From Ptiloglossa arizonensis (lineage: Eukaryota > Arthropoda > Insecta > Hymenoptera > Colletidae), in assembly GCF_051014685.1 (NCBI RefSeq), contig NC_135055.1, positions 17,906,001-17,970,000 of the forward strand: 64,000 nt of DNA, read 5' to 3'. The position numbers and the translations under genes are program-made. Under the pieces are notes generated by a model that worked only from the letters and a program-made list of their open reading frames with translations, searched no databases and had not been told where the DNA came from. The first letter of the stretch is position 1; each line of letters starts with the position of its first letter. Shown here piece after piece: positions 8,661 through 54,254 of the stretch.

Positions 8661-9379
8661 CCGAGTCGTCTCTGACCGATTTCTCCGTGTAATGGTTCAT
8701 CGAACCAACGACCAGGGAAATTGTGCCGGTAGATAGCTAAGCAGATTCGCGAGTTCTCTTAACGAGAATCGAATGAACCAGTCGGTCGAGTAGTCAGCGT
8801 TTTAAACGAGACGCGTTACGATATTACGATATTCAACCCTTTCGACCTCCGATAAACGTTCGAGAGACTTCGCTATTCGTTTCCCATTGGCGTCATTGAT
8901 TTTCTTCCGGCGAAGAATCTCGTCCAACTGGAACGAAACCTGTCTTTCGACGGTGATGAGTAATTAATTCGACGATGCGACTGGGTTGGATATTTCTTTG
9001 ACGATGGGAGAAAAAATGATACAAAGTTGTTACAACGTGGTGCGTCTTTCCACGACCTCACCTCTCTCCTTCGTGCACCGATGCACCTGTAAAGTGCAAT
9101 TACTTTTCCTCTTCTTCTTCCTCCTTTTTTTTTTCTTTCTTCCTTACCTTTGCATCTGCGACTTTATGAATAGAACGAGGTTCGCGAGAGTCTTCTCAGG
9201 TCCGTGTAGATCCATTCAACGATTTGTACGGACTCTGCTTCTTTTCCCACGTCCGCGACCCAACAGAAGGAGGTACATACCCTTTTCAGAGTACGTGGCT
9301 CGCTGTTAAGGTTACGCGATTCGATTATTTTCAAGACTCGAGGACGCGTTAAATGACGGTCCCTTCTTTTTGTTCGCAG

Positions 9380-9631
9380 CGTGTCAACAGGTCAAATACG
9401 GCGTGCAAGCGGTATTCGGGCCGTCTGATCCGGTACTGGGCCAACACATTCACAGCATCTGCGACGCACTGGACATTCCACACCTGGAAGCCAGGCTGGA
9501 CCTGGACCCGGAGGCGAAAGAGTTCAGTATCAACCTTTATCCCGCACAAAGTTTGCTCAACGCCGCTTATCAGGACATCATGGAGTTTCTTAACTGGACC
9601 AAGGTCGCTATCATCTACGAGGATGACTACG
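9380..9631 (+). CDS. GRIK2-like: Kainate-type glutamate receptor, internal exon A (amino-terminal domain)
   Basis: This exon encodes the first part of the receptor's extracellular amino-terminal domain that is visible here, starting with ACQQVKYG and containing the family hallmark VFGPSDPVLG, then ICDALDIPH, FSINLYP and WTKVAIIYEDDYG. The order matches animal kainate receptors (GluK1-3 type), where this clamshell domain directs subunit assembly. The acceptor is TTGTTCGCAG before 9380 and the donor is GTGAGT at 9632. The exon starts with the last two bases of a codon and ends with one base of a Gly codon, so it is internal and at least one exon lies upstream. An N-glycosylation sequon (NWT) is coded at 9592. 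The first Cys (9382) corresponds to one half of a disulfide described for mammalian GluK subunits. Recognition is at family level; the exact orthologue is not certain. Confidence 0.95.
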
Positions 9632-12600
9632 GTGAGTGGATTCTTCGTCTCGATTCGTCACGGTATTGTTTACAATTGACCAAGTTACTCCGACGACTCG
9701 AGAGTTCTTTGAAATTATTCACCAACTACTTCCATTTCGTAATCAACGAAACGAAGATCCCGACAGGGACGAACAACATTTTATTCGTAACGTGAAACTG
9801 GTATAATTATATATTTGTAACGTTTGGAGTATAATTCATATTGCAATTTTTATCGAGAAAGTAACCTATCGGAGGTTATTCACCTTTGATTCGTTACTCG
9901 ATAGTTTTATCTGGACAAAAATTTTAGTTCTTCATTCGTGAGAAATTAATTTGATTTTTATCCGTCTCTTGTTCTTGATTCGTAAGAAATTAATCTACGT
10001 TTGTACGTCCCTGGTTCTTCGTTCGTAAAAGAATTAAAAATACTTGTACGATTTTTGGGGAGAAGAGAACGTGTCGTAGGAACGTCCTATTCTAATTCCA
10101 AGTAGTTACTAAACTGTTATAATAAATGTAGGAACTACCGGTAGCCAGTTGCTTCCCGTGTCTGACTACGGACGCGCTATACTACTTCCCGCGCTCGTTT
10201 CACTCTAAACGTAGCGTCGAATTTCCAACGGGGAAATTAAAAACGAAAAGTGCTGATAAAACTAGCGTTGTAAACTTTAGGGCTGTTAAGTTTTAAACCT
10301 ATCATTTTTACAAACTGTTTCAACTAATATTAGCCCGTTGAATGGTCTCGTTTACACGCGCAATAACACGAGAGTATAACCATTCGAAAATGAAATTCTT
10401 TAAACGAATATCTAAATTTTCGAATCATTTCCATTCCTCGAGGAATATAAAATTCGATAACAACTTATTCTCCATCTCGTAGATTTCTACTTCCGTGGCG
10501 GACTATTTCCCATATTTTCCAACACCTCTGTGAGCCGACCCAAAAGAAAAGAATTCCACTTTGGTTAATTATTTATTCGAGAATTCGTTAAAAAAAGTGA
10601 CTCGCGGTAAAACGAAAAAACCTTCAACCTTCTTCTCCCTTGTGAAAATACACACTCGGTCCTCTGGTTCCGACCTCGAAAAGCAAGAATTTTTCACCGA
10701 AAAGCAGAGCCTCGTGAACATTCACGATGAAGAAAGTAACGGCGAGTGTGCTCGCTGCTTTTTGCCAGGGACATTAACCGGAATGCATATTCATAATCTC
10801 GTCGTCCTGTTCGACTTCTCGAGGACGCAGGACCGTGAACAGTGGCATCGTCCTCGAAACTTTCGGCCCGCGTCGTTTCTAGTGCACTCGTTCGTTATAA
10901 TTCGACGTTATAAAAAGCAGCGTGCTCGAGAGGCCGGTCCCGAATATTAATTTAAATCGTTCCGATGAATCGGTCTTCGAACGCCTCCTTTGGCTCCCCA
11001 CCCACTCCCCTCCCACTCTCGAGTAGAAAGTTTCGAGCCAACGAAACGACTGGAAAATCCGTGAGTATCGTTAATTGTATCGATACTCTCCACCGATTTA
11101 CCCGAGGTTTGATTATCAATTTGCGCGACACTCTACCGGTAAGAAAAGTTCCTTCCAATTACGGGGTTCCCATTAGGAACGATCACCGCTGGTAATAACC
11201 GTTGATTAATAACGCGGGGAAAAATTGGAATAATGAAATTCATTCGTAACGAGAGACCTCGTCTATTCGGTCCCCTCGTTTCTATCGCGAAGAAACCAGT
11301 TTCGCGTGGAGGGAATTCCGTCTAATTAATTCATAAAATGGCAGTTTAAACCGAGCGAAGATTCCATTCGTCGACGGTTCAACGGTTCCTCGTACCACGT
11401 ACCGCCATTCTTCGGTCCCGATCTTCGACGATGAATAATGTAAGGGATCGAGGGGAATTATGTAAGCTGCACGTGAGCGATATCAAACCCCTTGGTGGTG
11501 TCGCTTCGCGTTCACCGGTTCCACGGGATTTTAATTAACATTTGCTACATACCGCTCGTCTTCGATACAGCAACGAAACGATAACCATTCTTTCGAAATG
11601 TACCCGGGAGATGGATCAGAAACGACACGAGGAACAGTGGATTCAATGAACGGGACCGATCGTCGGTGTCTGATCGGGTACTGGTGTAATCTACTCGGTG
11701 CAGACTGAGATGTTTAGAATGGCATTTAAGTTCGACATTGTTATTCCTCAGAATGGTTTCCTAGGAGAATGTGTTTGTGCCATTGGAGAATTAACTGTGT
11801 GGTCATTGTATCCACCGATTGTATTTGAATGTAAGGATTATCTTTATTGTACAACACGTGACTAAAGTTTAGAGGTTTGAAGAGTAACGAAACTTTTTTA
11901 ATAATACTAGTATATTTATTTAAAAAGAAAAAGTAACGTAGCAGCTCTCGCTAGACTTTCTTCGATTCTGACTTACTTCGAGAAATCTCCAACAAGTGTT
12001 CCAATTGCGTTTCTCTCGTAACTTATATTCTCACGCGCATTTATTTACTTTTATTCTAATTCTTAATCTTTCTCACTCCATGTATTTGATTATATTCAAA
12101 ATTCTTTAGTCTGGTGCCATTTTAATTGCTCATCTTTCGCACCTTAGTTCGGATATGTCATTTTGTTCAAGCACTTTTTTTTCACGCCTTGAAAACATTT
12201 AATTCACTTTGTCTATCTCGAACACTCTTCACAATTTTGTCAGATTGTATTTCGTTACAGTCCCACATATATATATATATAGCTTGGTAGTTTGTTAATT
12301 ATGGTTATCTGGCGCAATCTCCTTAGCGCAGCCCTGGAAGTTATTATTCACGTTCGATATTATGGATAAATTATACTAAGTTTGTTTTCCAAACTCGGTG
12401 CCTATTTAAGATGGAAATCTAATAAATTTTCCACGATTGGCGACTAAAATATTTCAATATTTCGTAACTTTATTACTGTCGTATATTTTCGTTCTCATTA
12501 ACGATTACACTGCCCGTGTACATAAATAATATACCACGAGGGAGAAGAATTACGAAAAGATGATGCAATACAACATGAAAATTTTAACAAGTTCTCGCTT

Positions 12601-25815: not shown

Positions 25816-26342
25816 CGAATAAATTCAAGCATCGGCTCACATATCAAATTCCATTTTCCTCGAGTTCCACCCACCCCCACAACCCCGAGTTCTGCGTCAA
25901 CGCATCGATTAATCTCGACACGCACCGTTAACCACACATTTGAAAAATCATTTCGATCGGACGCGACGCACCGTTGCCTGTTAATTTTTCCGATCCAATA
26001 GGCCATAAACCACCCGTTCCGTTACAAATCGAAGTCCAATAGCTTTCCGCGCTGTTTACGACGATATCATTTCCCGCGGTCGACGACGCTTTATCGTCGC
26101 GAGAGAGCGAGCGAGCGATTTCCGAGCGGAAGTTAACGTGCACCGATATTCGCTCGTGAAATTGGCGACGTGGTTGTCGGTGCGTAGAAGGAGCTAAAAA
26201 AAAAAAGAAAAATAATAAAAATAATAATAAAAAAATATATCACCACCAACTATCCGACCCCCTCTCGAGGAGGTCTCGTAGATGATTGGTTCCGCTTTAA
26301 TCGACGCGACGGTTGCTTAATGGTGCCACGCGTGGGTTTCAG

Positions 26343-26518
26343 GGCTGGTGAAGCTACGAGAGCTCGTCAGGTCGCGGAAGTCTCGGGAGATCGAGGTGAA
26401 CCTCAGGCAAGCCGACCCGGATTCCTACCGGCTGGTTCTCTCCGAGATGAAAAGCAAGGAAATACGGAATCTCATCGTGGATACTAGGCCGGAGCACATG
26501 CATCATTTTCTACGAATG
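26343..26518 (+). CDS. GRIK2-like: Kainate-type glutamate receptor, exon B (amino-terminal domain)
   Basis: The exon continues the previous one: its first two bases complete the split Gly codon, giving DDYG followed by LVKLRELV. It ends in frame at HHFLRM. It carries the segment that in the family links the two lobes of the amino-terminal domain (compare GLIRLQEL in mammalian GluK2), then the LRQAD..SYR..L.EMK pattern and the conserved beta strand IRNLIVDTRPE. The acceptor is GGGTTTCAG ending at 26342 and the donor is GTAACT at 26519. It is separated from the upstream exon by 16.7 kb of intron. The coding assignment rests on family similarity, frame continuity and splice sites. No frameshift or stop is seen. 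Confidence 0.93.
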
Positions 26519-28367
26519 GTAACTGCATATTCGTCTATCGATTTCCCGCTCGCCGCGGCTTCGGTAATCCCGACGAGGATATATCCGCGATATTTTCCCG
26601 CCTCGCATCGTACACGGGCTGCCTCGAGCAAATAACGTTAACATTGCCACGGTATTAATCGAAGGTCGAGTTGTTCTCGTAAGGGCGATTATTCGCGATT
26701 CTTCCACTCGAGCCTCGGGGAAACAATGCGAACGGATTGTTTTTATGCGAGATTAATTCGTTTTTACGGAGTTTTGGGTATCTCTGCTCGGAATATTTAA
26801 AGTTTTGGAAGGATCGTGGATAGAAGCTTTTTCGTAGTGATATCAAGGTCGTTTTGGAGTTTTCATATGGAACTTTTGAAAGATAAATGGATTTTTTTCG
26901 TTGTATTGTAGAAGACGTCGAAATTAATTTCAAAGTCGTATAAAATTGGTTTCTTTTTTGTATTAATAGTATCTTGTTTGAATTTGAATTTTTCATATTT
27001 TTCGAGCGAAGAAATGTACATGAGATAATTGTATTTATCGATCAAAACACCTTGTACATTTTCGATCTCGATTCGTAGATTTTGAGACAATTTCGAAAGC
27101 GAGAGAATAGATTATAAAAGAAAAAGAAAAATTCGAAACGGGAGAATAACAATATCGAGCGTATTTTTAAAGAATATTCATAAAAATCCTAAATAAATAC
27201 GTAAATGGAATACGAAACCTAAAATGAATGTTTGTTTACCTTTCGTTTCATTGCTCGAATTTATCGTCAAAATAAAAATCAAATCATTCGCGTGTGTTTC
27301 AATACAGACGAAACTGTTCGTGTAGGTGTTAACACTTTTCCTTTTTTTTTCTTTTTTTTTTTCGAAGCACGCCGTATTTATTTTCAACCCGACACCGGTT
27401 GCGGATTATCGTTATCTCGCTCGCGTTTAAATAATACAACGCCCGTGAAATTTGCCCCGTGCCTTTTATATATGTTTCAATATAACCCAAGGTTTCCGAA
27501 TTTTTGGAAACAGACCCGGTAGTTATCGTCCGGGTATCTGGGTCGTGGGTAATTGCAAAAATTTCGCTCCGAATTTTTCCCATTGTCGCAAATCCCACGA
27601 TCTTGCGAGGCGGGCCAGTTTTGCTGTGTACCTAAACGGAAATGGAATTAAATTAAAACCCGGGACTGTACAGCGTACGAGTACAGGAGATGACTTTCAT
27701 GGAGAGGATAAGTTTTGAACGCGAACGAGACACCGAACGTTATTACACAAGTTTCCGTTTGTTTTTCTTTTATTTTTTTTTTCGATAATAAGAAACTATC
27801 ACCATACCTTATTTTCCAAGAGTAAAAATTTCTATACTCAAAGTCATTTCAAGGTCAAGTTATCATTCGTTTCGATATTAGTTACATCGTCTCCAAATAA
27901 TAGGTATCTAATTAATATTTTTTAAATATTAATCGACACTCGTTCAAATAGTATAACCTTGAACGAAGTAAACTAGAAATAGTAATATTTCAAAAATCGA
28001 ACAATTTTTTCTTTTGTTTCCATTGTCAAAGAGAATGGAGATACTTTGGAGAATGGAGATACACCTGTATTTCGAACAAACGCTAAAAGTATGATACCAC
28101 CCTAACGTTAATTCGTTTCTGCAACGTTCACGCGAAAATAAAATATCCCTAGACGAGATTTACCCCCGAAAATGATTCCAAACGATCGTACGCGAGACTT
28201 CTCGTCGCGAATTGTTTCGAAACGTCCGAGTGGCGCTCTTAACTTTTATTAGCAAAGAATCGAGCACCGAGAAAATCGAAACGAGAGGGCTACGAACAAT
28301 AACGTAAATATTACCCGAGCGATCGCAGCTGGCTCGGTGATAAATCTTCGTACGTACTTACTTTCAG
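26519..28367 (+). other. 1.8-kb intron between exons B and C
   Basis: A GT-AG intron with donor GTAACT and acceptor TTTCAG. It is AT-rich with T runs near 27340-27362 and 27770-27782. I see no gene, RNA gene or mobile element in it. Confidence 0.85.
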
Positions 28368-28421: not shown

Positions 28422-28488
28422 GTAAGTACCCTTCGGGCACGGAGAGAGACAGCCACGAGCTTCGGGATCCATCTGTCCCTTTTTCCAG
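28422..28488 (+). other. 67-base intron between exons C and D
   Basis: A short GT-AG intron with donor GTAAGT and a pyrimidine-rich end (CCCTTTTTCCAG). It is close to the minimum intron size typical of insects. It is recognised by intron definition in a gene whose other introns here exceed 1.8 kb. Nothing else is visible in it. Confidence 0.9.
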
Positions 28489-28653
28489 GATATCGAGACC
28501 TTCGACCTCGAGGACTTCAAGTACAATTTCGTCAATATCACTGCCTTCCGTCTGGTGGACGCCGAGGACGTCGGCGTCCGGGGTATTCTGAGGGACATGG
28601 AGCGGTACCAGCCATCCGGGAATAAGATCCTCAACAAATCGAGAGTCATACAG
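28489..28653 (+). CDS. GRIK2-like: Kainate-type glutamate receptor, exon D (amino-terminal domain)
   Basis: Fifty-five codons in phase 0 at both ends. The start is DIETFDLEDFKYNFVNITAF, matching the DL..LDLEPYRYSGVNLTGF stretch of mammalian GluK2, followed by RLVDAEDVGVRGIL and ending with NKSRVIQ. The acceptor is TTTTTCCAG ending at 28488 and the donor is GTAAGA at 28654. N-glycosylation sequons are coded at 28534 (NIT) and 28633 (NKS), as expected for an extracellular domain. The NIT site sits at the same place as the family's VNLTGF sequon. The following intron is 25.2 kb and holds most of the repeats, the mariner relic and the hammerhead candidate. Confidence 0.95.
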
Positions 28654-29192
28654 GTAAGATTTGTCCGTGTACTGGAACCCCTGGGCGATCGAATATCCGC
28701 TCGTTGAATGTTTACGCGATTCGAGACTCGAGCAGCGACGAGTTGCGTTTTTCTTCGCGCGCTCGTTTATCTCGTTAACGGGAAATAGCGGTTAGAAAAA
28801 ATATACAACTGGTTCTTTTATCGCACGGTTCGATGATCGATATATATTCCGAGATGCATTCACATCGATATATTTCCAACCCTTCAGAGTTGAAGAATTG
28901 AGGTAGTATCTTTTCAAAGCAAACTGCTACCAATGTGTACAATATGTACCATTTTTTGAGGCACGATGTGCGTTTTGTTTAACGTATACTTGAACGACAG
29001 ATCTCGAGAATGTTCGAGAGTGGAATTTTTAAGAGGAGTGTAGGCAAAAAAATTACGATGACACGGTTTCCTGATGTTTTAGAGCGTTGCTTGTTTAAGA
29101 CCGTAAAATAAATCGGTGAACGGTTAAAATTTGCAAGGTAGGTTTCTTTGAGTTGTATTTTCTAGGGGTATTGTGTCTTCGATGTTGTCCAT

Positions 29193-44500: not shown

Positions 44501-44599
44501 GGTGTTATCGCGTCGCGGTGGTGTGGCGACGCTACCCACGCTTGCCACCAGAGGGAAACTTACCACTAACCGTTTCCCGCAAGTTCCCGTACCTGCTCC

Positions 44600-44629
44600 G
44601 ATCGGTATATATACGATCCCATACCGATC
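44600..44629 (+). other. Small hairpin just upstream of the hammerhead candidate
   Basis: GATCGGTAT (44600-44608) and ATACCGATC (44621-44629) form a perfect 9-bp stem with a 12-base loop. It ends 13 bases before stem III of the hammerhead candidate. The stem and loop include TATATATA. Whether it belongs to the same RNA structure or is chance is not clear. Confidence 0.4.
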
Positions 44630-44641
44630 TTCCAATGTCCC

Positions 44642-44710
44642 GGCGTATAAGGCAGGGCCTGCTAGGATGCCTTACCGACGAGTCCACTAGCAGGCCCGGG
44701 ATGAAACGCT
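44642..44710 (+). ncRNA. Candidate type III hammerhead self-cleaving ribozyme
   Basis: Read 5' to 3' on the gene's coding strand, the sequence folds as a type III hammerhead. Stem III is GCGU (44643-44646) with ACGC (44706-44709), extendable by one G-U pair. The cleavage triplet is G-U-A, with the expected cut between 44647 and 44648. Stem I is UAAGGCA (44648-44654) with UGCCUUA (44668-44674), seven perfect pairs. The core is CCGACGA (44675-44681), against the consensus CUGANGA. Stem II is GUCC (44682-44685) with GGAU (44699-44702). The GAAA core is 44703-44706. Loops I (44655-44667) and II (44686-44698) are 13 bases each and complementary over 11 bases. The only core deviation is C for U at position 4, which may lower activity. 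It lies inside the 25-kb intron, so cleavage would cut the pre-mRNA intron. No second copy was noticed. The fold is seen directly; activity is inferred. Confidence 0.72.
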
Positions 44711-47700
44711 TCTCCCCACTTCCTTATATTTCCGTTCTCTCCTTCCTCTTACATCTTCAAATTTAGAGCCGCCAAAGTGGTATTCCGATTCCGTCACGTG
44801 CATAAGGACGACGATACCCGTTTCGCTTTAAATGCTAATGAACAAGCTCCGATCCCGGCTACCCGAAAACAGGAGCCAGTCGCGAAGTGGCGGAGTTCGC
44901 GGACCTGGCTGGCGCAGCGTGGATGAAAAATGACATGGCTGGCCGAATTAATTTCGAGCGACAATTATTCCAGAGGGACGGATCGTGGATTAAGACGTTC
45001 CCTCTGGGAAGTTCCAGCCACGTTCCTACGGACCTTGTAATTTCGATGCTCGCGCGGAACTTGCGAAATTTGTGGCGCGCGACAAATGTCTACCAACTAA
45101 CCGGCAATCCGTCTAATCTACTCCACCCTGAACCGGGCATTAGGCCGCCAGCTTGAAACCGGGATTACGGAATCCTCTTAGACACCGCGGGACTTTTAAT
45201 TTCGATTAATTAACTGCCGCAATCGCCCGTGAACGTCCCTTAATTTATCGCTGAGATTTCAGGGTGCGTCGAAGTCTTCCGGTTGGCGAGCTGGTTGCCG
45301 GTCCTTTGAGGAGACACTCGACGATATAGCCAACCCAGGTGTAACTTGGACTTTATCCTTTGAGAAAACACTGGACCGTAAACTTAGCCCAGACTTTGCT
45401 TAGACCTTCGAGGAAACACTGGTCAAATTTAACAACTTTAACTTAAACTTAATCTCGATCTAACTTAGACCTAATCTTTCAAAAAGATACTATAATAGAT
45501 GATAGATTTAACCCAGATTTGGTTGTTGGAGAAAATCTCAATCCTAACGCTCGAATAAGTTGCCATTTTAGCCTAGCTTGGTTCGAGGAACTTGTCTACG
45601 CGTGCGTTGATGTCTCTTTCGAGGCTCCAGAGTCGAAAACCAAACGCAAACGCGCGAAATCAACTCGCACTGCTTGTATTGTTGATCCATTTTTATGAAA
45701 TCGTCCAATCTATGGACAATTCATATCCAAAAGAAAAGAACTCCCATTTTTGAAAATCGTCTAAACGAAAATATCTCCTACGTGTTTTTAGACAAAATTT
45801 AGTGACCAAAACGAGAGACATTAAAGAAACGAAGAAGTACAAAGGATCCTGGAACGATGAATATAAAAAGAATTTCAATTATCTATCCTTTTATGTACAC
45901 AAAGTATGTTCTTTTTTCTCACGATAAAGCGAAGTGTATTTATAAATTGATAAGAGGAAACGAATGAAAATTTTACCGATCAATTTTACAATTTCTCTCT
46001 CGGGAGACTGTTTCGCTTAATTAAGTTACCCGAGCCGGTGTTACCTGTTCGAAGACTATTATGCTAAATGACTAGCATCCGCGTAAAGAAAATTATACGA
46101 ACTGGTAGAACAAGGAAGACTCCAGACACGATTCCAGTTGAAACCGGAGAGCCGGTGCGTGTAACAAAGTGCTGAACGCGAACAAGCTCGACGTCGCAAC
46201 TTCGTCGCGTTACCTCGGACTTCGGCTAATTAAAACTACGCTCCAATTAGCTCGAAATAACGGTCGTGTGTTCCTATAGCAACAATTATAGCAAGTTTGG
46301 TCCGACGATGGTGAGATTTCCGATTACGTAGCTCCTTACCAACACGAGTTTTTCAACAGCCGGCTGCGGACTGAATTTTTCGTCGATTTTAATAGCGATT
46401 TAATTTTCAACGACTGCGAATGAAAACTAAAAGAGCATAAAAGCGTTCACGTTGCCAAGTTTCTTCGAGGAACGATGGAGAATTGATTCGTAAGTACTAA
46501 ATTTGTTGTAATACTCGTTGTAATTGGTTGTAATTGGTATAAAGCAAAGCTTGTTTCATTGATAAACTTCGTCCGCGTGTATACAGTTAACTCAATTCAA
46601 TCACCGCAATTTTTACCGTAATTAGTACACGAATCAATATTTTTCTTCTTATTACAATTGATACGATTTTGAAGAATTTTTACCTATATTAATAAAAAGT
46701 CTTTCGAACGTTTAGGAATACCTTAGTGGGCAGTTCTCTGCACGGGGCCATTCCGAGACGTCAGTACTCAACGTTCGAAAATAGTAATCGAATATCGTTA
46801 AGGTATTGAAGAATTAAGAGAACAGGTGTCCAGTAAATCGTGAATAATGTATTTTAATTTTCTCGACGCACGCGATCGCACTTGGCAGACTTTCTCATTT
46901 TCCTCCTCGCAGTTCACTCTTAACTGACTTTGCAGGAAAGTGCACGCTCTCCGGGCAACCCATTCGTGCGCGTATTCCTCTAAGTTCCTCTAAACGTAGC
47001 ACTTCCTATAAGAGCCTAATGTAACGTAAAGCTGACTGAAGATACGGACGCTCGAAGCTAAAAGCCCTTCTAAATGAAAACTTACCTCTACTGAATAATT
47101 CGCCCAAAGGGTTATCAGAACTTTTTTCCATAAAACGAACCTTTGAAAATACTACAGAACTCTCGTTGGTGCAGCAACAATATCACCGGAACGTGTACCA
47201 TTCACCTCGCGGATGAGTTCAATGCTATTTTGTTCCTACGTTTACAATGTACCCGTACAAAATTTTGTATCGAAATTCATACAATAGCTTATTATATAAT
47301 AATATTGGAATATTCTCCCTTCCCAATCGTTCTACTTTTGTCCAAAACATTCTCCACCGCGGTTAATTGTAGCGATGTAATCTTCGTTTATGGTAAAAAT
47401 GTATTCACAGCGAAAAGAGAATCTTATCGTTACGTAAAAATGATTCTTACAGAGATACTATTTTATCAAGACGGTGTAACCTCTTTGAATTTCCACTTTT
47501 CAACTTACTCGGAGATGGTTTTCCGCGGTATCGTGGGTTTCTTCTCTGTTCTTTCGATCGAAACAACTTCGACGAACCCCACACTAACTTCGCAAAAAGT
47601 TTATTTATTTCTCAGCCAACGAACCCTCCAACTGTGGTTACATCGGATCGTTAACCAAGTTCTACGGATTTTGAACTCGAAAATATCCAAATATTGCTAT

Positions 47701-53622: not shown

Positions 53623-53841
53623 AGCTGAAACGATCCATTCTCGTGTCTCTTTCATGGTACTATCGTCGCGAAGCGTTTAATAATTTTCGGCCACGCCATT
53701 CGCAGGAAGTGATTTCGCACTTTCGGTGTAATTTATGCCGCCCTTGGACACTCGTCCGGAAAAAAGTGGCGGCACGTGAAAATATTTAATGCCCCGAAGA
53801 CCGCCAAGGCGTAGAACTGAGGTTAACGTTAACTTTTTCAG

Positions 53842-53994
53842 GCGGAGCCAGCCCTGATGTACGACAGTGTGCAGGTGTTCGCCGTGGGATTGAGGACCCT
53901 GGAGCAGTCGCACGCGTTGAGGCCAGCGAATATCTCTTGCGAGATGGAGCACCCCTGGGACGGTGGACTGTCCCTCATCAACTACATAAACTCG
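53842..53994 (+). CDS. GRIK2-like: Kainate-type glutamate receptor, exon E (amino-terminal domain)
   Basis: Fifty-one codons, phase 0 at both ends. The start is AEPALMYDSVQVFAVGL, equivalent to TDAALLYDAVHIVSV in mammalian GluK2, and the end is DGGLSLINYINS, equivalent to GGRFMNFIKEA. The acceptor is AACTTTTTCAG ending at 53841 and the donor is GTGAGT at 53995. A sequon (NIS) is coded at 53929 and the Cys just after it (53938) is the expected disulfide partner of the first Cys of exon A. The next family block (the end of the amino-terminal domain and start of the ligand-binding domain) is not found in the remaining 10 kb, so the gene continues beyond the window. The foldback element begins about 530 bases after this exon. 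Confidence 0.95.
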
Positions 53995-54254
53995 GTGAGT
54001 TTCCGCGACTTACGTGCACGTGTACCTCTTTAAGAGATCGCGGACGTGTAATTTCGCGAAACTTGATCCTCGTTTTGCTCCTTTCGCGCGAAATCCACGT
54101 ACATTTACGAGCAGTTACGATAAGTAACATTTTTCTGGCGTCCGATAAGAAGTATTTGCGATACTGGTCCGCAAATGCGGCATTCGCAGGGCTACCGTCG
54201 TTTCTGAATCGAGTGGGTGGAGTAATAATTTTATTTCGAATCGATGGAGATTTT

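What the first reader, a model, noticed from the sequence alone, without database searches (positions are those of the whole stretch)
44642..44710. Candidate intronic type III hammerhead ribozyme in a kainate receptor gene
All parts of a hammerhead are present in order and at correct spacing: stem III GCGU/ACGC, GUA cleavage triplet, seven-pair stem I, core C-C-G-A-C-G-A, stem II GUCC/GGAU and GAAA. It is on the transcribed strand of a 25-kb intron. From general knowledge, intronic hammerheads conserved in vertebrate genes are known, and the animal hammerheads best known from mobile elements are mainly type I, so a single-copy type III in an insect neuronal gene would be unusual. The core has C instead of U at position 4. 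Activity is an inference.
Basis: partly seen in the sequence, partly recalled or inferred. Interest (0 to 1): 0.9.

Follow-up and report, generated by a model that had tools for sequence, protein, structure and literature searches.

The report
Jumping element carrying self-cutting RNA
The self-cutting RNA motif in this gene's intron is not a private switch of the gene but the remnant of a mobile element with many copies in the same genome, built like the plant 'retrozymes' that the papers seen here describe as a plant form.

Summary
It is not single-copy. It lies in a 255-bp solo LTR (44522-44776) flanked by a 4-bp target duplication, GTGG. The window's own genome gave 1122 first-look candidates; the 40 scored were 95-100% alike. 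Full copies read LTR, about 505 bp without recognisable coding content, LTR, with a primer site for tRNA-Trp (68 of 69 internal regions), a polypurine tract (69 of 69) and 4-bp duplications (57 of 64 elements). Of 133 LTRs, 120 have the core CUGANGA; the window copy is in a C4 minority. The ribozyme is the most conserved part of the LTR. Loops I and II are complementary over 11 nt, a possible kissing helix. Two loci carry tRNA-Trp with CCA joined to the LTR end, pointing to the primer. This is the layout of plant LTR retrozymes; papers seen here describe animal retrozymes as non-LTR, type I. Cleavage and RNA circles are inferred. Rfam scores stay below cut-off, covariation is uninformative, no partner was found, other species could not be tested.

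The parts
44518..44521 (.). left copy of the 4-bp target-site duplication GTGG
44522..44776 (+). solo LTR (TGTGGCG...CCGCCAAA), 255 bp, of the retrozyme-like element
   Evidence: one of 133 LTRs compared
44777..44780 (.). right copy of the target-site duplication GTGG
44606..44613 (+). TATATATA, putative promoter; the predicted cut lies 42 nt after its first base
   Evidence: sequence; distance measured on the L003 LTR; function inferred
44643..44709 (+). type III hammerhead (U4C variant)
   Evidence: sister copies with U4 match RF00008 below its cut-off
44643..44646 (+). stem III 5' strand GCGU; pairs with 44706-44709
44647..44647 (+). A17, predicted cleavage after this base
   Evidence: by analogy with hammerheads; not tested
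44648..44654 (+). stem I 5' strand UAAGGCA; pairs with 44668-44674
44655..44665 (+). loop I part GGGCCUGCUAG, exactly complementary to loop II
44668..44674 (+). stem I 3' strand UGCCUUA
44675..44681 (+). core CCGACGA; position 4 (44676) is C, U in most copies examined
44682..44685 (+). stem II 5' strand GUCC (G10.1 pairs with U as a wobble)
44687..44697 (+). loop II part CUAGCAGGCCC, partner of 44655-44665
44699..44702 (+). stem II 3' strand GGAU
44703..44705 (+). core GAA (G12 A13 A14)
44706..44709 (+). stem III 3' strand ACGC
28426..28704 (+). open frame holding the likely kainate-receptor exon upstream of the intron
   Evidence: GluK2 chain 229-271, E 0.044; no Pfam match at E 0.1
53833..54030 (+). 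open frame holding the kainate-receptor exon downstream of the intron
   Evidence: PF01094 E 3.1e-5, just below its curated cut-off; GluK5 chain 285-343, E 9.7e-5

Best explanation
The feature is a solo LTR of a non-autonomous LTR retrotransposon whose LTRs each carry a type III hammerhead: an animal LTR retrozyme by architecture. Shown from sequence: paired LTRs around about 505 bp without recognisable coding content, primer site, polypurine tract, 4-bp target duplications, dispersed copies, the canonical hammerhead core in most LTRs examined, and tRNA-Trp sequence joined to the LTR end in two loci. Inferred: transcription starts between the TATA box and the ribozyme. The hammerheads of the two LTRs cut out an RNA of about 760 nt. 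That RNA is joined into a circle and primed by tRNA-Trp. The enzymes of an unidentified autonomous LTR retrotransposon copy it and insert it as solo, two-LTR or multimeric units. The loop I-loop II complementarity is taken as the contact that holds the ribozyme fold. The intronic copy is a passenger with a C4 core, so probably weakly active.
For: Own-genome searches give 95-100% identical LTR matches (40 scored of 1122 candidates) and full-length matches of 91-100% (one search also lists two short ones at 89 and 94%). 68 loci gave 133 distinct LTRs in 64 elements (52 with two LTRs, 7 with three, 1 with four, 4 with one), and 4-bp duplications in 57 of 64. By flanks these are 43 insertion groups. 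TGGTGACCCCGTC follows the LTR in 68 of 69 internal regions, and AAGGGGGTTA precedes the next LTR in 69 of 69. The genome's tRNA-Trp gene matches the first 11 nt of the site and a further exact 16 nt of the leader. Two loci carry 38 nt of tRNA-Trp plus CCA (39 of 41 bases like the gene's 3' half plus CCA) fused to the LTR end. Core CUGANGA in 120 of 133 LTRs. The ribozyme has mean variability 0.0035, against 0.0088 upstream and 0.085 downstream in the LTR. RF00008 aligns to the same core. LTR start-to-start spacing is 756-769 bp; in Jatropha retrozymes the cut sites enclose 697-776 bp (PMC4918200, passages).
Against: No cleavage or RNA data. RF00008 scores are well below its cut-off, and RF00008 run on the whole genome reported nothing at E up to 10. 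Stems are nearly invariant in the family. Of 20 substitution types at paired positions 7 keep the pair and 13 break it; the 7 include both sides of one compensated pair (stem III G-C to A-U in L056). By chance 27 of 52 transitions, or 27 of 156 substitutions of any kind, would keep a pair, so covariation does not support the fold. Alone the strand folds best as a long hairpin that leaves most of stems I and II open (-27.9 against -12.2 kcal/mol for the hammerhead without loop-loop pairs). The 11-nt kissing helix may be too long to form in full. Tandem units also occur in TRIMs without a reported ribozyme, so they do not prove circles. Copies were picked as best matches to the queries, so young copies are over-represented.
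Confidence: 0.85

Rival explanations
1. An ordinary TRIM-type element that moves by conventional linear RNA; the conserved LTR stretch is a hairpin (11-bp stem plus outer stem) with some other role, and the hammerhead likeness is accidental or dead.
For: The hairpin dominates the minimum-energy fold. TRIMs for which no ribozyme is mentioned occur in ants, bivalves and cestodes; those of ants share the LTR/PBS/PPT layout and 4-bp duplications. RF00008 scores are below cut-off. No cleavage data.
Against: All three stems and the core fit a descriptor that gives 0 hits in 80 simulated windows. The hairpin leaves open the bases that form stem I, stem II and the core, yet these are about as invariant as the hairpin arms apart from position 4.
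Confidence: 0.1
2. The ribozyme is active, but the element moves by conventional LTR retrotransposition of uncut RNA; cleavage only limits transcripts or processes their ends, with no circle.
For: PBS, PPT, 4-bp duplications and the tRNA-LTR junctions are explained without a circle; multimers can arise by recombination (proposals reported in PMC6934838, passages).
Against: The cut falls 42 nt after the start of the TATA box, so it would probably remove the repeated R end needed for strand transfer unless the RNA is circular or escapes cutting (inference; the transcription start is unknown). Plant retrozymes with the same layout do make circles (PMC4918200, abstract and passages).
Confidence: 0.25
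3. One reading: a conserved intronic ribozyme that serves the kainate-receptor gene.
For: Sense orientation in a 25-kb intron of the gene.
Against: Solo LTR with target duplication, one of many dispersed copies; core of a kind reported to be slower in vitro. Orthologous introns could not be examined.
Confidence: 0.03

Closest known systems
Plant LTR retrozymes (Cervera et al. 2016, PMC4918200; abstract and passages)
   Same: Type III hammerhead in each LTR, non-coding centre, PBS and PPT, 4-bp target duplications, solo LTRs and dimers, some 700-770 bp between cut sites (Jatropha).
   Different: Animal host; primer tRNA-Trp instead of tRNA-Met; LTR 255 bp instead of 300-400; loops I and II share 11 complementary bases instead of the non-Watson-Crick contacts given for most type III hammerheads (PMC7936874, passage); GC 54% in one unit against more than 55% on average (PMC7229834, legend); partner unknown.
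Metazoan non-LTR retrozymes (Cervera and de la Pena 2020, PMC7229834; passages)
   Same: Non-coding, multi-copy, hammerhead-bearing animal retroelement; tandem units.
   Different: Those have type I hammerheads, RNAs of about 170-400 nt, GC below 50%, and no LTR, PBS or PPT.
Animal TRIMs, e.g. PbTRIM of harvester ants (PMC3532108), biv-TRIM (PMC6934838), Helenus (PMC10886601)
   Same: Small non-coding LTR elements; PbTRIM and animal Helenus have PBS, PPT and 4-bp duplications, and both occur in Hymenoptera.
   Different: The word hammerhead does not occur in the PbTRIM and biv-TRIM papers; PbTRIM uses tRNA-Leu and biv-TRIM has no clear PBS; Helenus LTRs hold tRNA-like promoters, and ARAGORN finds no tRNA in L003.
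Type III hammerheads of HDV-like circles and of insect genomes (PMC7936874; passages)
   Same: Animal type III hammerheads with loop I-loop II pseudoknots.
   Different: Those lie in HDV-like RNAs or as isolated motifs, with longer helices; the authors' structure searches for that shape found none in hymenopterans.

Membership tests
Hammerhead ribozyme, type III | Core CUGANGA...GAA with U16.1-H17 and three stems, ends in stem III | tested here: met
   120 of 133 LTRs have CUGANGA before GUCC; the window copy departs at position 4 only
Hammerhead ribozyme, type III | Rfam RF00008 above gathering score | tested here: not met
   22.8 against 48.5 bits for U4 copies; no hit for the window copy or L002; none in the whole-genome search
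Hammerhead ribozyme, type III | Covariation of the stems | tested here: inconclusive
   family too uniform; one compensated pair; 13 of 20 substitution types at paired positions break a pair
Hammerhead ribozyme, type III | Self-cleavage | not testable with these tools
   needs transcripts
LTR retrozyme | Hammerhead embedded in both LTRs | tested here: met
LTR retrozyme | PBS next to the 5' LTR and PPT next to the 3' LTR | tested here: met
   exact PBS in 68 of 69 internal regions (the other has one changed base), PPT in 69 of 69
LTR retrozyme | 4-bp target-site duplications | tested here: met
   57 of 64 elements, 5 bp in one, none in two, four not readable
LTR retrozyme | No protein-coding capacity | tested here: met
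   one copy examined (L003): longest + strand frames 126-176 aa, best Pfam E 0.087, below its cut-off
LTR retrozyme | Circular RNA intermediate | not testable with these tools
   no RNA data; one unit folds as a circle more stably than 40 shuffles, z -5.6
Metazoan non-LTR retrozyme | Type I hammerhead, no LTR, PBS or PPT | tested here: not met
Helenus (TRIM with tRNA-like LTR) | tRNA-like sequence in the LTR | tested here: not met
   ARAGORN finds none in L003; no tRNA family in the Rfam scan of L002, L003, L008

The most novel reading that the evidence does not exclude
An animal lineage of LTR retrozymes that spreads through hammerhead-made RNA circles primed by tRNA-Trp, holds its ribozyme together by an unusually long kissing helix, and assembles its LTRs and tandem units from more than one RNA template.
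Probability: 0.45. Interest if true: 0.85.

Novelty: new variant of a known kind. Interest (0 to 1): 0.72.

Why it matters
A 2024 review and a 2025 paper divide retrozymes into plant LTR elements with type III and animal non-LTR elements with type I hammerheads (PMC11722881, PMC12029980; passages). An animal element with the plant layout breaks that division. It bears on where LTR retrozymes, and the viroid-like circles proposed to descend from them, came from; de la Pena et al. 2020 named insects among possible sources (PMC7761336, passage). It raises the question whether other animal TRIMs hide ribozymes, and gives a high-copy animal system in which a ribozyme-circle model of LTR transposition can be tested.

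Tried and rejected
Autonomous partner: copia-type gag pieces downstream of an LTR copy (L084/L087; PF14223) looked at first like an autonomous element with the same LTR. Rejected: the gag belongs to a separate copia family with its own LTR and another primer site, and the retrozyme LTR plus tRNA piece sits inside that copia LTR. Gypsy as partner is only a guess from the 4-bp duplications.

Covariation inside the family: uninformative. RF00008 over the whole genome: nothing (68 of 95232 candidates scored). Exact 21-mer in viral contigs: none. Pfam on three frames of one copy: nothing above cut-off. Receptor motifs (recalled) of the ligand-binding and pore part: no convincing exon in the window. 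Multimers as proof of circles: rejected, since recombination has been proposed for TRIM tandems. Helenus: no tRNA-like LTR found. A single-copy or gene-specific role: rejected. The C4 core as decay of this one copy alone: rejected, since it recurs in older copies; but two young C4 cases (C410 and C2:28222835, 98-99% like U4 copies) look like fresh changes, so one origin is not shown.

Not done: a test in other species (no eukaryote collection here), and a scan for diverged hammerhead LTR families and for other tRNA-Trp elements (pattern searches of the genome did not complete).

Full report
Check of the observation. A type III descriptor allowing one core mismatch finds only this site in the window and nothing in 80 simulated windows; without a core mismatch it finds nothing in the window. 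Rfam at gathering score finds nothing in the window. At E up to 10 the local stretch gives only a weak unrelated match. One feature was missed: eleven bases of loop I are exactly complementary to eleven of loop II. On a U4 copy, the hammerhead stems alone score -12.2 kcal/mol, the competing hairpin of stem III plus the eleven pairs -27.9, and the eleven pairs as a duplex -22.3. The hammerhead with kissing loops contains all pairs of that hairpin plus stems I and II, so the two need not be alternatives; whether all eleven pairs fit sterically is open.

What surrounds it. A search of the window's own genome (999 Mb, 2016 contigs) with 161 bases gave 1122 first-look candidates; the 40 scored were all 95-100% identical, several in pairs about 760 bp apart. 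Comparing copies shows an LTR of 255 bp, TGTGGCGG...CCGCCAAA. The window holds one solo LTR, 44522-44776, with GTGG on both sides; the element has no other match in the window. Full copies are LTR, about 505 bp without recognisable coding content in the copy examined, and LTR.

Family statistics. 68 fetched loci gave 133 distinct LTRs in 64 elements: 52 with two LTRs, 7 with three, 1 with four, 4 with one. Target duplications are 4 bp in 57 of 64, 5 bp in one, none in two; in four an end was cut or not found. Several elements sit in duplicated DNA; by flanks there are 43 insertion groups, 7 with three or more LTRs. Eleven further older solo LTRs were fetched and aligned. The loci are best matches to the queries, so young copies are over-represented.

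The ribozyme in the family. The hammerhead block is identical and canonical in 111 of 133 LTRs. The core before GUCC is CUGACGA in 119, CUGAUGA in 1, CCGACGA in 11 and something else in 2. One of these 2 is a C4 core with a changed stem II, so one search counts 12 with C4. Among 147 copies (the 133, the eleven older ones and three from C14) 17 have C4. C4 copies are on average further from the column majority (91.7% against 97.3% identity) and clustered on the tree, four changes against 11.3 for shuffled labels, near-copies included; one origin is neither shown nor ruled out, and two C4 cases look recent. So C4 is no accident of this one copy: several C4 copies with their own target sites exist. 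Perreault et al. 2011 state that a U4C variant, though considerably less active in vitro, sustains viroid infectivity (PMC3088659, passage). The ribozyme is the most conserved part of the LTR: mean variability 0.0035, against 0.0088 for the part before it and 0.085 for the part after it; its 67-nt window ranks third of 189, the best starting one base earlier. Copies with U4 align along the whole type III model RF00008 at 22.8 bits (E 0.0047 against all 4227 models for 121 bases), below its cut-off of 48.5.

Against the fold. The family is too uniform for covariation. Of 20 substitution types at paired positions 7 keep a pair, two of them being the sides of one compensated change in stem III; 27 of 52 possible transitions, or 27 of 156 possible substitutions, would keep one. 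RF00008 searched over the whole genome reported nothing, with 68 of 95232 candidates scored.

Reverse-transcription signals. Of 69 internal regions, 68 have TGGTGACCCCGTC after the LTR (the other has one base changed) and 69 have AAGGGGGTTA before the next LTR. The genome's tRNA-Trp gene (L080, ARAGORN) with CCA added matches the first 11 bases of that site. In L003 the leader then has a further exact 16-base match to the complement of the same tRNA, a two-part primer site. Two loci on contig C14 carry 38 bases of tRNA-Trp plus CCA, 39 of 41 bases like the gene's 3' half plus CCA, joined to the reverse complement of the LTR end. The CCA is not encoded in the gene. I read these as fossils of tRNA-Trp-primed minus-strand DNA. 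They lie inside the LTR of an unrelated copia family and are probably one event, later duplicated.

Arrays. All eight elements with three or four LTRs have matching outer duplications. The units inside often differ; in C6:18609602 units one and three are identical and the middle one is 92.4% alike, whereas in the two C9 arrays the units are 99.6% alike. After grouping by flanks, 12 of 49 neighbouring LTR pairs are identical, and in 26 the two LTRs differ from each other more than either differs from its nearest LTR of another insertion. Copying from more than one template, gene conversion, or recombination with new cDNA could each explain this.

Gene context. The + strand carries kainate-receptor N-terminal-domain exons: 9310-9792 (PF01094 E 1e-14; GluK2 E 2.4e-15, against 0.002 for the best AMPA receptor), probably 26321-26632 (E 0.079), 28426-28704 (GluK2 E 0.044) and 53833-54030. 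The last two match neighbouring stretches of the receptor chains, and the element lies between them, sense to the gene.

How it most likely works. Shown: LTR element, primer site, target duplications, canonical hammerhead core in most LTRs examined, tRNA-Trp joined to the LTR end. Inferred: promoter at the TATA box, whose start lies 42 nt before the cut; double cutting to a unit of 756-769 nt; ligation to a circle; copying and insertion by another element's enzymes. The unit of L003 (760 nt, GC 54%) folds as a circle more stably than 40 shuffles (z -5.6).

Comparison with what is known. Plant LTR retrozymes have 300-400-bp LTRs with type III hammerheads, a tRNA-Met site, polypurine tract and 4-bp duplications; in Jatropha the cut sites enclose 697-776 bp (PMC4918200, abstract and passages). 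Animal retrozymes are described as type I, lacking LTRs, PBS and PPT (PMC7229834, PMC7761336, passages), still so in a 2024 review and a 2025 paper (passages). Structure searches for the HDV-like type III shape found none in hymenopterans (PMC7936874, passages). Animal TRIMs with a similar layout are known. The PbTRIM paper (first part read, and passages), the biv-TRIM paper (passages) and the cestode TRIM paper (word search only) do not contain the word hammerhead. My ten library searches listed no paper that I recognised, by title, start of abstract or the parts opened, as describing an LTR retrozyme in an animal; most subscription journals and preprints are not held.

Verdict. The motif is real and the intron is supported, but the thing is a mobile element. 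By architecture it is an LTR retrozyme in an animal, a new variant of a known kind; catalysis and the circle remain to be shown.

Noticed in passing
L083 and L084 (C14:2735400-2737200; C14:2602600-2603400): 38 nt of tRNA-Trp plus CCA joined to the LTR end, inside the LTR of a copia family: a likely fossil of tRNA-primed reverse transcription that runs past the usual (recalled) 18-nt copy of the primer.
   Followed up: partly
C6:18609602-18612146 (L068) and seven other arrays: Tandem LTR-internal-LTR arrays with matching outer 4-bp duplications; in most the units differ by several percent (A-B-A in C6).
   Followed up: partly
L003:918-952: Two-part primer site: after 11 bases complementary to the tRNA-Trp 3' end, a further 16 bases complementary to the middle of the same tRNA.
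   Followed up: partly
LTR positions 191-250 (window about 44712-44771): The LTR part just downstream of the ribozyme is many times as variable as the rest of the LTR.
   Followed up: no
L003:1-662 and 1674-2715: A satellite array of about 20-bp units into which a full element inserted (duplication AAAC); other elements share flanks and seem to have been multiplied with repeated DNA.
   Followed up: no
L087-L089 (C14, C69, C6): A copia family with 17 gag stretches 84-85% like L087, with an LTR and primer site unlike the retrozyme's; in L088 it lies next to what looks by eye like part of a non-LTR reverse transcriptase frame (no search made).
   Followed up: partly
C9:8975843 (+) and C9:8985982 (-): A three-LTR array with the same flanks in inverted orientation about 10 kb apart: a palindromic duplication or an assembly artefact.
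   Followed up: no
L003:663-1677, + strand: All three plus-strand frames of the element have long stop-free stretches (142, 126 and 176 aa), with no Pfam match above cut-off.
   Followed up: partly
window 1-64000: CpG observed/expected is 1.62, unusually high.
   Followed up: no
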